Assembly (NCBI RefSeq): GCF_016900775.1 | Contig: NZ_JACJKN010000006.1 | Coordinates: 62,001-126,000, forward strand | DNA from: Olsenella uli | GTDB taxonomy: Bacteria; Actinomycetota; Coriobacteriia; Coriobacteriales; Atopobiaceae | DNA length: 64,000 nt | Reading direction: 5' to 3' | Shown here: piece after piece, positions 14,916 through 21,911 of the stretch | Layout: every line of letters begins with the position of its first letter | Position numbering within the stretch: position 1 is the first letter of the stretch | Notes under the pieces: generated by a model | Databases searched by the model: none | Told to the model about the DNA's origin: nothing | What the model saw: only the letters and a program-made list of their open reading frames with translations | Program-made: the position numbers and the translations under genes

Positions 14916-15018
14916 CCATGCCGCCGGCGGCACGCCGGGAAACAGGCGCGAAACACGCGTGTGAGAACCTATCGCTGAATAATGAGTAGCCCTGCCGGTC
15001 AACCGGAAAGGAAACCGC

Positions 15019-16359
15019 ATGAGCAGCGAGAAGGACATCGACTTCGTTCTCCGGACCGTCGAGAAGCGCGACATCCGCTTCGTGAGGCTGTGGTTCGCTG
15101 ACGTGCTCGGCAACCTCAAGTCGTTCGCGATCTCTCCCGAGGAGCTCGAGGAGGCCTTCGAGGAGGGCATCGGCTTCGACGGCTCGGCCGTCGACGGCTT
15201 CGCCTCGCTCGAGGAGTCGGACATGCTCGCCTTTCCCGACCCCGACACCTTCGCGCTGCTGCCGTGGCGCCCCTCGGAGTCCGGCGTCGCGCGCGTCTTC
15301 TGCGACGTCTTCACCCCCTCGCGCGAGCCCTTCGAGGGCGACCCGCGCCGCTGCCTCAAGAAGGTCTTCCAGGCGGCCGAGGAGCGGGGCTACGTGCCCA
15401 ACGTGGGTCCCAAGATGGAGTACTTCTACTTTGACAACGACCTCGACCCGGTGCCGCTCGACAACGCGGGCTACTTCGACCTCACGCCCATGGACACGGC
15501 CAACGACCTGCGCCGCCAGACCACGCTCACGCTGGAGAAGATGTCCATCCCCGTCCAGTACTCCTACCACGCGGCCGGCCCCTCGCAAAACGGCGTGGAG
15601 CTGCGCTTCACCGAGGCCGTGAGCTGCGCGGACAACATCATGACGGCCCGTCTGGTCATCAAGCAGGAGGCCGCCGAGCAGGGCATGTACGCCTCGTTCA
15701 TGCCCAAGCCCATCACCGACGTCCCCGGGTCCGCGATGTTCCTCTACCAGTCGCTGCTCGACCATGACGGCGAGAACCTCTTCTGGGGCCCCAAGGAGTT
15801 CCACGAGGCGCACCTCTCCGAGCTCGCCCAGCACTACATCGCCGGCATCCTCAAGTATGCGCCCGAGTTCACGCTGGTCACCAACCCCACGGTGAACTCC
15901 TACAAGCGCTTCATCTCCACGGGCGAGGTGCCCACGCACGCCACGTGGGGCCGCAAGAACCGCGCCGCGCTCGTGCGCGTGCCCACGCACAAGCCGGGCA
16001 AGCACATCGCCACCCGCGTCGAGCTGCGCAGCCCCGATCCCACGGCGAACCCCTACCTGGCCCTCGCGGTGACCATCGCCGCCGGCCTCAGGGGCATCGA
16101 GGAGGGCCTGCCGCTCCCCGAGGAGGCCACGAGCGAGACGCTCGCCCTCTCCGAGCGCGAGCTCGCCGCCCGCGGAATCGCCCGCCTGCCGCGCACGCTC
16201 GGCGAGGCCGTGGACCGCTTCGAGTCCTCCGAGCTCATGCGCACCGTCCTCGGCGACCACATCTTCGACTACCTGGTCCGCGAGAAGCGCGACGAGTGGT
16301 ACGAGTACTGCACCGCCGTCACCGACTGGGAGCGCGAGCACTACTACGGCGGCTTCTAG
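15019..16359 (+). CDS. glnA: Glutamine-synthetase family protein with a divergent active site
   Basis: 446 residues, the length and fold of type I glutamine synthetase. IGFDGSAVDGFASLEESDM, NPTVNSYKRFIS and RVELRSPDPTANPYLAL are well conserved. Residues aligned with the metal- and nucleotide-binding positions are changed: GPKMEYF has Lys132 for the first Glu (Glu134 remains), YHAAGPSQNG has Ala185 and Gly192 for two metal Glu residues, and SAMFLYQS has Phe241 and Tyr243 for two His. Numbers in GS literature (E129, E212, E220, H269, H271) are my by-eye mapping. It may be a non-catalytic or altered-substrate member. The Tyr adenylylation loop is also not recognisable. It precedes an amino-acid ABC transporter and a GlnR-like regulator. 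An AAAGGAAA ribosome binding site is present. Confidence 0.85.
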   Translation: MSSEKDIDFVLRTVEKRDIRFVRLWFADVLGNLKSFAISPEELEEAFEEGIGFDGSAVDGFASLEESDMLAFPDPDTFALLPWRPSESGVARVFCDVFTPSREPFEGDPRRCLKKVFQAAEERGYVPNVGPKMEYFYFDNDLDPVPLDNAGYFDLTPMDTANDLRRQTTLTLEKMSIPVQYSYHAAGPSQNGVELRFTEAVSCADNIMTARLVIKQEAAEQGMYASFMPKPITDVPGSAMFLYQSLLDHDGENLFWGPKEFHEAHLSELAQHYIAGILKYAPEFTLVTNPTVNSYKRFISTGEVPTHATWGRKNRAALVRVPTHKPGKHIATRVELRSPDPTANPYLALAVTIAAGLRGIEEGLPLPEEATSETLALSERELAARGIARLPRTLGEAVDRFESSELMRTVLGDHIFDYLVREKRDEWYEYCTAVTDWEREHYYGGF

Positions 16360-16922: not shown

Positions 16923-17750
16923 ATGAAGCTCTCCAGCCGGATTGCGGGCGGCCTCGCGGTCGCCTGCGCGCTAGCCGTGACTATCGCGGGATGCAGCGGG
17001 GGAGGGCAGACCAGCACCCCCGCGGGCGACGCCGCCGACACCGCCGCCTACACCCTCGTGGAGGACGGCAAGCTCATCGTCGCCTCGGACCTGGCCAACG
17101 CGCCGCTCGACTTCGTGGACGAGAAGACCGGCGAGGCCCAGGGCTTTGAGATTGACCTCATCAACGCCGTCGCGGACAGGCTCGGCCTCGAGTGCGAGGT
17201 CCTGCCCGCCATGAAGTTCGACACCATCGTCCCGCTCATCGAGCAGGGCGGCAAGGCCGACGTGGGCGTCTCCAACATCACCATCACGGACGAGCGCTGG
17301 GAGCAGGTGGACTTCACCGACTCCTACATGGACTCCAACCAGGGCCTCGTGACGCTTTCGAGCGCGGGCGACGTGACCGAGGACTCCCTCAACGTCAAGG
17401 GCACCAAGGTCGCCGTCCAGGCCGGCACGACCGGCGCCTCCTGGGCCGAGGAGAACCTGCCCAACGCCGAGATCGTGGCGCTCGACGACCCGGTGGTGGC
17501 CGTGACCGGCGTGCAGACTGGGCTGTACGCCGCCGCCGTGGCGGACCTGCCCGTGATGACCTACCTCTGCTCCAACTCGTTCACCGACTGCCAGGTGGCC
17601 ATCGAGATCCCCACGGGCGAGCAGTACGGCATCGCCGTCAACAAGGACAACCCCGGCCTCACCGAGGCCATCAACGGCGCCCTGGCCGAGCTCGAGGAGG
17701 AGGGCTACGTCTCCGAGCTCGAGGTCAAGTGGCTCGGCGCCGAGCTCTAG
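16923..17750 (+). CDS. Amino-acid ABC transporter substrate-binding lipoprotein (first copy)
   Basis: Family 3 extracellular solute-binding protein, 275 residues, with a lipoprotein signal ending IAGCSG (lipid Cys about residue 22). The motifs FVDEKTGEAQGFEIDLINAVA, IVPLIEQGGKADVGVSNITI and TGEQYGIAVNKDNPGLTEAIN are typical of polar amino-acid binders such as the GlnH/ArtJ type. The ATG at 16923 is preceded by GGGGGAAGG; 28 upstream in-frame codons are not signal-like. It is followed by a paralogue, a permease and an ATPase in one direction. The ligand is unknown; the GS-like and GlnR-like neighbours suggest glutamine or glutamate. Confidence 0.92.
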   Translation: MKLSSRIAGGLAVACALAVTIAGCSGGGQTSTPAGDAADTAAYTLVEDGKLIVASDLANAPLDFVDEKTGEAQGFEIDLINAVADRLGLECEVLPAMKFDTIVPLIEQGGKADVGVSNITITDERWEQVDFTDSYMDSNQGLVTLSSAGDVTEDSLNVKGTKVAVQAGTTGASWAEENLPNAEIVALDDPVVAVTGVQTGLYAAAVADLPVMTYLCSNSFTDCQVAIEIPTGEQYGIAVNKDNPGLTEAINGALAELEEEGYVSELEVKWLGAEL

Positions 17751-17862: not shown

Positions 17863-18705
17863 ATGTCCAGCATGAACAGGCGTAACTTCGTTGTCACCCT
17901 CGGCCTTGCCGGCACCGCGCTGCTCGCGGGCTGCAGCGGCTCCAACGAGCCCGCCGCCGACGCCCCGGCCGCCGACGACGTGGCCGAGTCTACCGACGAG
18001 GCCTCCTACACCCTCGTGAAGGAGGGCGTGCTCACCAACGTGGCCGAGCTCGGCTTCTCGCCCTTCGAGTACATCGACGAGGACGGCAACACCGTGGGCT
18101 TTGACGTGGACCTCTCCAACGCCCTTGCCGAGAAGATGGGCCTCACCTGCGAGTGGCTGCCCAACCAGGCCTTCGACACGCTCGTCCCCACCATCAAGCA
18201 GGGGGGCAAGGCCGACATCTGCATCGCCGGCATGACGATCAGCGACGAGCGTCTCGAGGAGGTCGACTTCTCCGACCCCTATCTCAACTCCAACCAGGGC
18301 ATCGTGGCCGCCGCCGGCTCCGACCTCAACTCCGAGAGCCTCAACGCCGAGGGCATGCAGGTCGCCTGCCAGACCGGCACCACCGGCGACGACTGGATCT
18401 CCGAGAACCTGCCCAACGCCACCAAGGTGCCGCTGGCCGACGTCACGGCAGCCCTCATGGGCATCTCCACGGGCCTCTACAACGCCATGGTCATCGACCT
18501 CCCCGTTGCCCAGAACATGATCGCCGAGTCCTTCTCCGACCTCGAGGTCGTCGAGGAGATCCCCACGGGCGAGCAGTACGGCATCGCCGTCTCCAAGGAC
18601 AACCCCGGTCTGCTCGCGGCCATCAACGAGGCTCTCGCGGCCGTTGAGGAGGACGGCACGATGGACGAGATCAAGCAGAAGTGGTTCGGCACCACCGAGA
18701 TCTAG
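17863..18705 (+). CDS. Amino-acid ABC transporter substrate-binding lipoprotein (second copy)
   Basis: Paralogue of the preceding binding protein, 280 residues. The signal region MNRRNFVVTLGLAGTALLAGC combines a twin-arginine-like RRNF motif with a lipobox (LAGC), so export may be by Tat; a tatA gene is in this window at 53360. Motifs FEYIDEDGNTVGFDVDLSNA, KQGGKADICIAGMTISDERL and TGEQYGIAVSKDNPGL match family 3 binders. GGGAGG precedes the ATG at 17863. Upstream in-frame codons fall inside the palindrome. Two binders for one permease suggest two related ligands or affinities. Confidence 0.92.
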   Translation: MSSMNRRNFVVTLGLAGTALLAGCSGSNEPAADAPAADDVAESTDEASYTLVKEGVLTNVAELGFSPFEYIDEDGNTVGFDVDLSNALAEKMGLTCEWLPNQAFDTLVPTIKQGGKADICIAGMTISDERLEEVDFSDPYLNSNQGIVAAAGSDLNSESLNAEGMQVACQTGTTGDDWISENLPNATKVPLADVTAALMGISTGLYNAMVIDLPVAQNMIAESFSDLEVVEEIPTGEQYGIAVSKDNPGLLAAINEALAAVEEDGTMDEIKQKWFGTTEI

Positions 18706-18836: not shown

Positions 18837-20222
18837 ATGCAGCACAGACGAGGGGCGCTTCTCGTTGCCCTCGCCCTGGCGCTCACGGGCGTCTTTGCGA
18901 CGGCGGCGCCGCAGCCCGCGCAGGCGCTCACCACCGAGAAGGCCACCGCGCGCCCCAACGAGGACGGCGGCGACGGCGTCATCGGCGGGATGGACACGCG
19001 CCTGACCTGGGAGGGCACGGTCGAGCCCGGCGAGGAGGTCACCTCGGTCACGCTGACCCTGCCCGAGGGCGCCACGTTCGAAGGCTCCACGACGCGCATC
19101 ACCGCGCTCGAGGGCCTCTCGCGCATGGACGTGACCGGCGAGGCCACGCCCTCCGCCAACTCCATCACGGTGAGCTTTGACCAGGCCATCCCCGAGGGGT
19201 CGCTCCTGCGCCTGGAGATCACCAACATGCAGTTTCCCGCCGCGGGCGGCGACTGCGTGGTCTCCGGCAGCTACGAGTCCGCGGGCGCCACGCACGAGCT
19301 CGCGGACTCCGACCCCATCGCCACGATCGCCAACACCCCGCTCCAGAGCCTCGTCAACTGGCTTGACGAGCAGCCGTGGGTGGAGGCGTGGAACTCCAAC
19401 CAGTTCCTCGGCATGTTCTTGAGGCCCCAGCTGCTCGTGACGTCCTTCTCGTCGCTTGCGCCGGGCTGGCTGCTGTGCCTGGGGATCGTCGTGGCGGCCT
19501 ACCCGTTTGCCATCGCGCTGGGCCTGCTCTTCGCCATGCTCAAGATCTCCAAGTGGCGGATCTTGCGCGCCATCGCCGTGGTCTACATCAACGTGCTGCG
19601 CGGCACGCCGCTCTTCCTGCAGATCTACATCATGTTCTTCGGCCTGCCGATGCTCAACATCAACATCGACAACAACCTGCTTGGCATCATCGTCATGGCC
19701 ATCAACTCCTCGGCCTACCTCGCCGAGATCTTCCGCGCGGGCATCCAGTCCATCCCGCAGGGCCAGTACGAGGCCGCCAGCTCGCTCGGCATGAACTACG
19801 TGCAGACGATGTTCTCCATCATCCTGCCGCAGACCGTGCGCCGCGTCATCCCCACGGTGACGAGCGACTTCATCACCGCGTTCAAGGACACGTCGCTCCT
19901 CTCCTCGGTGGGCGTCATGGAGCTCATGATGTTCTCCAAGAACCTCACCACCGTCACGGGCAACATCACGCCGTACGTGGCCGCCGGCATCTTCTACCTC
20001 ATCGTCACGCTGCCGCTGATCAAGGTCGTGGGCATCGTCGAGGAGAACATCGCCCGCTCCGAGCGCGGCGGCGGCCCGCGCCCCAAGCGCCGCGCCGACG
20101 TGGCCGACCACGCTGACGAGCTCGTGGAGAAGAGCGCCGAGAAGGACGTGGAGAAGGGCGCCGAGAAGGACGCCCCCGCCGCTCCCGCCGCCCAGATGAA
20201 GGAGGCCGCGAATGCCTGCTAA
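18837..20222 (+). CDS. Amino-acid ABC permease with a fused secreted N-terminal domain
   Basis: 461 residues. Residues 1-31 are a signal peptide ([20 protein letters not shown]). Residues about 32-165 are a beta-rich domain ([19 protein letters not shown] and similar) that should be outside the cell. The HisM/GlnP-type permease follows (about 200-425) with the EAA loop [22 protein letters not shown] in pieces ([13 protein letters not shown]) that contacts the ATPase. The C-terminal 45 residues are charged, rich in Lys/Glu/Ala. GGAGG precedes the ATG at 18837. The gene overlaps the ATPase gene by 11 bases. The N-terminal domain resembles surface adhesin-like modules more than a solute-binding fold; its role is unknown. 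Confidence 0.88.
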
Positions 20223-21072
20223 GCGTCACCGCCGCGCCGCCATCGACGTCCCGCCCGCGCTGCCGGCAGACGAGGCCGCGCGCATCGCCTACGCGCACGA
20301 CCAGGGCCTCACGAGCCACCACTTCACGCCCGGCGAGCACCCCATCGTGCGCATCGAGCACCTCAACAAGAGCTTCGACGAGACGCTCGTCCTGAAGGAC
20401 GTGAACCTCAACGTCTGGCCCGGCGAGGTCGTGGTGGTGCTCGGGCCCTCGGGCTCGGGCAAGTCCACGATGCTGCGCTGCATCAACCTCCTCGAGCGCC
20501 CGAGCGCGGGGCACATCCTCATCGAGGACGAGGAGATCACCAACAAGAGCGCGGCCGAGGTCAACCGCCTGCGCCGCGACGTGGGCATGGTCTTCCAGCA
20601 ATTCAACCTCTTCCCGCACCTCACGGCCAAGGAAAACGTCATGATCGGCCAGACGAAGGTGCTCAAGAAGAGCAGGGAGGAGGCCGAGGCCGAGGCGCTC
20701 AAGCAGCTTGCCGCCGTCGGGCTCGCCGACCGCGCGGACTTCAAGCCCACGCAGCTCTCCGGAGGCCAGCAGCAGCGCGTCGCCATCGCCCGCGCCGTGG
20801 CCATGCACCCCAACGTGCTCCTCTTCGACGAGCCCACCTCGGCGCTCGACCCCGAGCTCGTCCGTGGCGTCCTTGACGTCATGCGCGACCTCGCGGAGAA
20901 CTCGGGCATGACCATGATCGTGGTCACGCACGAGATGGGCTTCGCGCGCGACGTGGCCGACCGCGTGGTATTTATGGAGGACGGCTACGTGGTGGAGCAG
21001 GGCCTGCCCGAGAAGGTCTTCGACCATCCCGAGAACGCCCGCACGGCCGAGTTCCTCGGCAGCATCAACTAG
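20212..21072 (+). CDS. Amino-acid ABC transporter ATP-binding protein
   Basis: GlnQ/HisP-type ATPase, 286 residues. Walker [10 protein letters not shown] (about residue 82), Q-loop [10 protein letters not shown], signature [14 protein letters not shown], Walker [14 protein letters not shown] and the H-loop VVTHEMGFA are intact. It has an N-terminal extension of about 45 residues before the domain. The ATG at 20212 lies inside the end of the permease gene, with AAGGAGG upstream, so the two are coupled. It drives uptake together with the permease and the two binding proteins. Confidence 0.95.
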
Positions 21073-21236: not shown

Positions 21237-21911
21237 ATGCATCACAAGAACATCCTTCTCGTATCTGCAACCACGCGGCTCCACGACCGCATGCGCGAGC
21301 TCTCCCACGCCATTGACGTCTCCATCGCCCTCGCGAGCGAGGAGACCTTCTCGCAGGCGGTCTCGTCCGGCCACGAGTTCGACCTTGTCATCCTGGACGG
21401 CGAGGGCATGGGCCAGGACATCCTGAACGCCGTCGACGCGTTCGTGGCGGAGAACGGCTTCATCCCGATGCTCCTCGTCCAGGACCCCGATAAGCTTGCC
21501 ACGCTGCGCATGCCCATGCAGGGGAAGAACGACTTCATCCTCTCCACCGCCGGCGTGGCCGAGCTCGAGGTCCGCTGCACCCTGCTGCTCTGGCCCGGCG
21601 AGGAGTCCGCGCCGGCCGACATCGTCACCGTGGACAACATGACGATCAACCTCGCCACCTACCAGGTCTATATCGACGAGAAGCCCGTCGACCTCACCCT
21701 CATGGAGTACTCGCTGCTGTCCTTCCTGGCCACGCACCCCAGCCGCGCCTACTCGCGCGAGACCCTGCTGCACCGTGTCTGGGGCTTCGAGTACTGCGGC
21801 GGCACGCGCACCGTCGACGTCCACATCCGCCGCGTCCGCTCCAAGGTGGGCCCCCAGGTGGCGAGCCACATCGTCACCATCCGCGGCGTGGGCTACCTCT
21901 TCCGCATCTAG
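21237..21911 (+). CDS. glnR: Orphan OmpR-family regulator, GlnR-like
   Basis: 224 residues: an N-terminal receiver-like domain (1-115) and a winged-helix DNA-binding domain (about 125-224; LTLMEYSLLSFLATHPSRAYSR, GGTRTVDVHIRRVRSKVG in pieces). The receiver lacks the acidic pair expected after the first strand (LLVSATTRLHD), though an Asp is kept in LVILDGEG. No histidine kinase is adjacent. This matches actinobacterial GlnR, an atypical unphosphorylated nitrogen regulator; the layout NDFILSTAG then AELEVRCTLLL resembles it. Location next to an amino-acid transporter and a GS-family gene supports a nitrogen role. GGGAGG precedes the ATG at 21237. It could instead be another orphan OmpR regulator. 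Confidence 0.75.
   Translation: MHHKNILLVSATTRLHDRMRELSHAIDVSIALASEETFSQAVSSGHEFDLVILDGEGMGQDILNAVDAFVAENGFIPMLLVQDPDKLATLRMPMQGKNDFILSTAGVAELEVRCTLLLWPGEESAPADIVTVDNMTINLATYQVYIDEKPVDLTLMEYSLLSFLATHPSRAYSRETLLHRVWGFEYCGGTRTVDVHIRRVRSKVGPQVASHIVTIRGVGYLFRI

What the first reader, a model, noticed from the sequence alone, without database searches (positions are those of the whole stretch)
15019..16359. Glutamine-synthetase homologue missing most metal-binding residues
By-eye alignment puts Lys, Ala, Gly, Phe and Tyr at five positions normally Glu, Glu, Glu, His and His (residues 132, 185, 192, 241, 243), while the substrate and subunit-contact motifs remain. This suggests a pseudoenzyme, perhaps a nitrogen sensor, or a ligase with another metal site. 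It sits near an amino-acid transporter and a GlnR-like regulator.
Basis: partly seen in the sequence, partly recalled or inferred. Interest (0 to 1): 0.7.

Follow-up and report, generated by a model that had tools for sequence, protein, structure and literature searches.

The report
Dead glutamine synthetase paired with GlnR
In two gut-bacterial families an ordinary ammonia-assimilating enzyme has lost the residues that hold its catalytic metals, yet it is kept under purifying selection beside a GlnR-type nitrogen regulator while a different enzyme probably does the chemistry, so it may have become a nitrogen sensor.

Summary
The ORF at 15019-16359 is a full-length type I-alpha glutamine synthetase (GS) that aligns without gaps across the metal site. 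Four of six metal ligands are replaced (E132K, E189A, E196G, H245F, B. subtilis numbering), the ATP-site His/Asn is Tyr, and the glutamine-feedback Arg62 is Ser. Two ligands remain.

The loss is not local. It defines one well-supported clade covering every copy read from two Coriobacteriales families, under purifying selection. Nearly all other relatives read keep all the ligands. Every good-quality Coriobacteriales genome sampled also carries a GSIII; the window genome's GSIII has intact ligands.

The gene's stable partner is an OmpR-type, GlnR-like regulator, directly downstream in most of the class. The two genes co-occur almost perfectly (122 both, 0 GS only, 3 regulator only, 24 neither). 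A GlnR-type box (GAAAC-n6-GAAAC) lies upstream of GS.

Best reading: a catalytically dead GS kept as a nitrogen-status protein working with GlnR, perhaps sensing 2-oxoglutarate, since the archaeal 2-oxoglutarate site is intact in the window's protein. Ligand loss, conservation and linkage are shown; inactivity, ligand binding and GlnR contact are inferred. I found no published description, though the library searched is partial.

The parts
14939..14954 (+). GlnR-type box GAAAC-n6-GAAAC upstream of the GS gene (a possible further half-site GTGAG follows at the same spacing)
   Evidence: found at similar positions and orientation before GS in 48 of 62 loci, essentially absent in that orientation before neighbouring genes
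15019..16359 (+). Degenerate type I-alpha glutamine synthetase, 446 aa
15205..15207 (+). Codon 63, Ser at the place of the glutamine-feedback residue Arg62
15412..15414 (+). Codon 132, Lys in place of metal ligand Glu132
15571..15573 (+). Codon 185, Ala in place of metal ligand Glu189
15592..15594 (+). Codon 192, Gly in place of metal ligand Glu196
15739..15741 (+). Codon 241, Phe in place of metal ligand His245
15745..15747 (+). Codon 243, Tyr in place of the ATP-site His/Asn247
16923..17750 (+). Amino-acid ABC transporter substrate-binding protein (family 3)
   Evidence: seen only in the window's family between GS and regulator
17863..18705 (+). Second substrate-binding protein (family 3)
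18837..20222 (+). Amino-acid ABC transporter permease
20212..21072 (+). Amino-acid ABC transporter ATPase, nearest to GlnQ (below the curated cut-off)
21237..21911 (+). OmpR-type regulator of the actinobacterial GlnR kind

Best explanation
A catalytically dead type I glutamine synthetase kept as a ligand-binding nitrogen-status protein that works with the GlnR-like regulator encoded downstream. Steps. (1) The ancestor had a working GS in a glnA-glnR arrangement behind a GlnR-type box (gene order and box shown; autoregulation inferred). (2) Coriobacteriales carry GSIII, which takes over glutamine synthesis (presence shown; takeover inferred). (3) In the ancestor of the window's family and its sister family, metal ligands E189, E196 and H245 were lost, most simply once; E132 became Lys in most of the window's family (pattern shown). 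(4) The substrate-site arginines, the ammonium-site Asp and much of the C-terminal contact region stayed conserved, so an oligomer with an anion-binding pocket probably remains (conservation shown; oligomer and binding inferred). (5) Arg62, which reads glutamine, is lost, while the archaeal-type 2-oxoglutarate site at the subunit interface is intact in the window's protein, so the signal is more likely 2-oxoglutarate (nitrogen shortage) than glutamine (inferred). (6) The ligand state alters GlnR activity by protein contact, controlling its own operon and possibly amtB-glnK in this genome (inferred). About 0.9 that glutamine synthesis is lost, 0.55 for the sensor/regulator role with GlnR, 0.3 for 2-oxoglutarate as the ligand.
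For: Loss of four of six ligands in a gapless alignment; one clade with support 100/100; 74 of 87 canonical near-invariant positions retained, the rest including all four lost ligands and residues beside them; dN/dS median 0.19; GSIII with intact ligands in the genome, GSIII in every good-quality Coriobacteriales genome; GS followed by the regulator within 300 bp in 35 of 38 checked genomes of families without the transporter insertion; co-occurrence 122/0/3/24; regulator nearest to GlnR structures; GlnR-type box before GS in 48 of 62 loci; 2-oxoglutarate residues R23, S35, R84, R165, R166, S182 intact in the window's protein (mapped from PMC11957540).
Against: No biochemical evidence of sensing, oligomerisation or GlnR contact. 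Linkage and a shared box could reflect co-regulation only. The sister family has largely lost the flap residue Glu304, and the 2-oxoglutarate site is altered in some members (a genus with L021-L024, a Thermophilibacter subclade, part of the sister family). In Firmicutes the contact uses the regulator's C-terminal tail, which this regulator lacks. In one genome (G102) the two genes are on different contigs. The co-occurrence test is not corrected for shared ancestry.
Confidence: 0.55

Rival explanations
1. Dead GS kept for a role that does not run through GlnR, for example a regulatory or scaffolding subunit acting on PII/GlnK, GSIII or a transporter; its link to the regulator gene reflects shared regulation only.
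For: A single PII gene lies beside amtB in the genome; M. mazei GS is known to bind GlnK1 (PMC11957540); a transporter sits in the operon in the window's family.
Against: Every one of 122 genomes with the GS has the regulator, and the pairing predates the transporter and the loss of the ligands.
Confidence: 0.25
2. An enzyme with another chemistry: a ligase or transferase with a remodelled or metal-free active site acting on a glutamate-like substrate.
For: Substrate-site arginines and D54 are conserved; a Lys at position 132 could stand in for a cation in most members of the window's family.
Against: The glutamate and ATP chemistry of this fold uses both metals (general knowledge); no new acidic residue is fixed in the clade's derived positions; the catalytic flap Glu304 is largely lost in the sister family.
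Confidence: 0.12
3. A still active GS whose metal ligands are supplied by shifted residues.
Against: The alignment has no gaps across the ligand motifs and the predicted fold matches solved GS at TM about 0.9; no conserved alternative acidic residue was found.
Confidence: 0.04
4. A decaying gene without function.
For: Relaxed positions such as Arg62 and the flap are variable across the order.
Against: dN/dS 0.19, full-length open frames in all copies read across two families, and conserved promoter box.
Confidence: 0.03

Closest known systems
Firmicutes GS with GlnR/TnrA (feedback-inhibited GS circuit, PMC9249791)
   Same: GS sits in an operon with a regulator called GlnR; the same GSI-alpha fold; GS is proposed to act as the nitrogen sensor.
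   Different: There the GS is an active enzyme, reads glutamine through Arg62, and binds the C-terminal tail of a MerR-type regulator. Here the metal site and Arg62 are lost and the regulator is OmpR-type without such a tail.
Actinobacterial GlnR (OmpR-type orphan regulator, PMC10704036)
   Same: The downstream regulator is most similar to it, and the GS promoter carries its type of box.
   Different: In characterised actinomycetes the signal and sensor reaching GlnR are described as unknown; a linked, degenerate GS as partner was not found in the literature searched.
Archaeal 2-oxoglutarate-activated GS (M. mazei, M. thermolithotrophicus; PMC11957540, PMC10799026)
   Same: All six mapped 2-oxoglutarate contact residues are present in the window's protein; closest solved sequence and fold.
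   Different: Those are active enzymes with all metal ligands; here binding is untested and four ligands are lost.
Lengsin, the vertebrate lens GSI remnant (noted in PMC2667176)
   Same: A catalytically inactive descendant of class I GS retained for another role after a different GS took over.
   Different: Lengsin is eukaryotic, not linked to a nitrogen regulator, and proposed to act in the lens.

Membership tests
Functional type I glutamine synthetase (GlnA) | GS N- and C-terminal domains and dodecamer-type fold | tested here: met
   PF03951 and PF00120 above cut-off; predicted monomer fold matches solved GS; oligomer not tested
Functional type I glutamine synthetase (GlnA) | Six metal ligands E132, E134, E189, E196, H245, E333 | tested here: not met
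   Only E134 and E333 kept
Functional type I glutamine synthetase (GlnA) | Score above NCBI's curated GlnA cut-off | tested here: not met
   416.3 against 429.15 bits
Functional type I glutamine synthetase (GlnA) | Glutamine synthesis activity | not testable with these tools
   Needs an assay
Firmicutes-type GS sensor of GlnR/TnrA | Arg62 for glutamine feedback | tested here: not met
   Ser63 in the window's protein; variable across the order
Firmicutes-type GS sensor of GlnR/TnrA | MerR-type partner with GS-binding C-terminal tail | tested here: not met
   Partner is OmpR-type and ends at its DNA-binding domain
Firmicutes-type GS sensor of GlnR/TnrA | Direct, ligand-dependent binding of GS to the regulator | not testable with these tools
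   Only linkage, co-occurrence and promoter evidence here
Actinobacterial GlnR (downstream regulator) | OmpR-type DNA-binding domain closest to GlnR | tested here: met
   Best solved relatives are GlnR of S. erythraea and M. tuberculosis
Actinobacterial GlnR (downstream regulator) | GlnR-type receiver domain | tested here: inconclusive
   PF21695 GlnR_1st in 16 of 47 members; window copy below cut-off; no ordinary receiver match
2-oxoglutarate-responsive GSI-alpha | 2-oxoglutarate contact residues R26, S38, R87, R172, R173, S189 (M. mazei) | tested here: met
   R23, S35, R84, R165, R166, S182 in the window's protein; altered in some relatives
2-oxoglutarate-responsive GSI-alpha | 2-oxoglutarate binding | not testable with these tools
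   Needs a binding assay

The most novel reading that the evidence does not exclude
The protein is a dedicated, enzymatically dead glutamine synthetase that senses 2-oxoglutarate and directly controls an OmpR-type GlnR. It would supply the missing nitrogen sensor for GlnR in these bacteria, and suggest that the active GS encoded beside GlnR in other actinobacterial lineages does the same job.
Probability: 0.25. Interest if true: 0.85.

Novelty: new variant of a known kind. Interest (0 to 1): 0.62.

Why it matters
How nitrogen status reaches actinobacterial GlnR is described as unknown (PMC10704036). A GS that probably cannot catalyse but stays linked to GlnR would separate sensing from catalysis and give a clean system to test whether GS is that sensor. 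It also means that 'glnA' annotations in two gut-associated families probably do not denote an ammonia-assimilating enzyme; the GSIII gene is the likelier one.

Tried and rejected
Sequencing or annotation error: rejected, every copy read from the two families shares the losses. Recent pseudogene: rejected, dN/dS 0.19 and intact frames. Only GS of the cell: rejected, a GSIII with intact ligands is present. The transporter as the key partner: disfavoured, not found between GS and regulator in the sister family. GSIII as a target of the same box: not supported, 2 of 33 promoters. amtB: box in 3 of 16 promoters of the family, suggestive only. The count of strict boxes in the genome (3) equals its reversed control, so it is not evidence by itself. 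Rfam scan of the window: nothing. Paper searches for GS in this group, GS pseudoenzymes and GSIII gave nothing relevant; the library holds only open-licence papers. The regulator's AlphaFold2 model was not used for domain placement because its pTM is only 0.55.

Full report
Observation. The ORF at 15019-16359 encodes 446 aa with both GS domains, PF00120 and PF03951. Aligned with 175 homologous ORFs, the query carries K132, E134, A185, G192, F241, Y243 and E335 where canonical GS has E132, E134, E189, E196, H245, N/H247 and E333. Four of six metal ligands are gone. The ligand motifs align without gaps to the solved M. mazei enzyme. An AlphaFold2 model built from 56 relatives has pLDDT 90.4 and pTM 0.92 and matches solved GS structures at TM about 0.9. 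I could not measure ligand geometry because coordinates are not returned.

How wide is it. Named close relatives are Thermophilibacter and Olsenella, so the window is from Atopobiaceae (group f1). Every f1 copy read, and every copy read from a sister family (f3; Coriobacteriaceae by inference, since group codes carry no names), lacks E189, E196 and H245. E132 is Lys or Arg in most f1 members, while most f3 members keep Glu. A third family of the order (f2, probably Eggerthellaceae) and the other families read keep the ligands. One partial exception is L145, an f2 sequence with E132A that branches as sister of the degenerate clade. Twenty-seven loci from outside the class also keep them, one with the conservative change E132D. 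In a maximum-likelihood tree f1+f3 form one clade with support 100/100 on a branch of 0.43, consistent with a single origin of the loss.

Not decay. Of 87 positions at least 97% conserved in canonical sequences, 74 stay at least 85% conserved in both degenerate families. The 13 others include the four lost metal ligands and neighbours such as H183 and D194. The arginines equivalent to R298, R316, R321 and R335 are 97-100% kept, as are D54 and Y152. Median pairwise dN/dS among close relatives is 0.19, against 0.15 for gpmA and 0.10 for the regulator.

Who makes glutamine. The genome has one other GS, a GSIII of about 700 aa with intact ligand motifs GPEQEYFL, HNEVAPAQHE and GSGKHN. GSIII was found in every Coriobacteriales genome of the class sample and only twice outside that order; in a second sample of the window's family it was found in 25 of 25 good-quality genomes. 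Many other families of the class instead carry a second, canonical GSI. That GSIII relieved the ancestral GSI of its catalytic duty is inferred.

The partner. In f2, f3 and most other families of the class checked, GS is followed directly by an OmpR-type regulator: 35 of 38 checked genomes within 300 bp. Homologues also lie near GS in several lineages outside the class. In f1 an amino-acid ABC transporter usually lies between them. Across 149 genomes, 122 have both genes, 0 have GS without the regulator, 3 have the regulator without a strong GS match, and 24 have neither. Fisher p is 9e-25, not corrected for shared ancestry. One f1 genome, G102, has them on different contigs. The regulator's best solved relatives by sequence are GlnR of Saccharopolyspora erythraea and M. 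tuberculosis (names). Its receiver matches the Pfam GlnR N-terminal domain in 16 of 47 members, below cut-off in the window copy, with no match to the ordinary receiver family.

The promoter. A GlnR-type box, GAAAC-n6-GAAAC, lies at 14939-14954; the published GlnR boxes have this form (PMC10704036). Such boxes occur, in the same orientation and mostly 60-120 bp upstream, before GS in 51 of 67 f1, 7 of 16 f3 and 20 of 21 intact class members outside the order, against a background of 0.013 per 200 bp; only 3 of 13 f2 members have one. Neighbouring genes show essentially none in forward orientation. The strict pattern GWAAC-n6-GAAAC occurs three times in the genome: at GS, upstream of amtB-glnK, and at one further place. 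The reversed control also gives three, so the count alone is not informative; the placement is suggestive. GSIII promoters mostly lack it.

Which signal. Arg62, required for glutamine feedback in B. subtilis and M. mazei GS (PMC9249791, PMC11957540), is Ser here and variable across the order, but invariant in the intact relatives outside it. The six residues that hold 2-oxoglutarate in M. mazei GS map to R23, S35, R84, R165, R166 and S182, all present in the window protein and in most f1 sequences. They are altered in L021-L024, in a Thermophilibacter subclade and in part of f3. This favours 2-oxoglutarate over glutamine but does not show binding.

Conclusion. Loss of the metal site, its confinement to one clade, purifying selection, a separate GSIII with intact ligands, and the tight link to a GlnR-like regulator behind a GlnR-type box are shown by computation. 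Lack of activity, ligand binding and control of GlnR are inferred. It may work like the GS sensor of Firmicutes, but it is not a member of that circuit as defined: Arg62 is absent, and the regulator is of a different family with no C-terminal tail. No published account was found in the open-licence library, which leaves out most subscription papers.

Noticed in passing
window, 19 places including 16376, 16780, 21952/21975, 34921/34964, 40445/40464: The 11-mer GCGAGAAGAAC (usually preceded by G) occurs 19 times in the window against 0.05 expected, and 404 times in the genome against 6 for the reversed control. Some copies form close inverted pairs, one inside a terminator-like hairpin. It looks like a DNA-uptake-sequence-like dispersed repeat; it was also seen in several loci of other Atopobiaceae and in none of the five loci checked from other families.
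   Followed up: partly
L145 and L221 (genome G072): An f2 GS with E132 replaced by Ala but the other ligands intact branches as sister of the degenerate clade, a possible intermediate.
   Followed up: no
loci L149-L165, L171 (other families of the class): Many families of the class outside the order carry a second canonical GSI that has Arg62 but an altered 2-oxoglutarate site.
   Followed up: no
window 18837-20222: The ABC permease has an N-terminal extension of roughly 200 residues with a weak, sub-threshold match to DUF2808 before the membrane domain.
   Followed up: no
loci L040-L043 and relatives: In one Thermophilibacter subclade the transporter between GS and regulator is a more distant homologue (about 45% identity, one binding protein), as if replaced in place.
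   Followed up: no
G132 and G096: Two Coriobacteriales genomes lack both a strong GS orthologue and the regulator orthologue, consistent with joint loss; G096 is fragmented.
   Followed up: no
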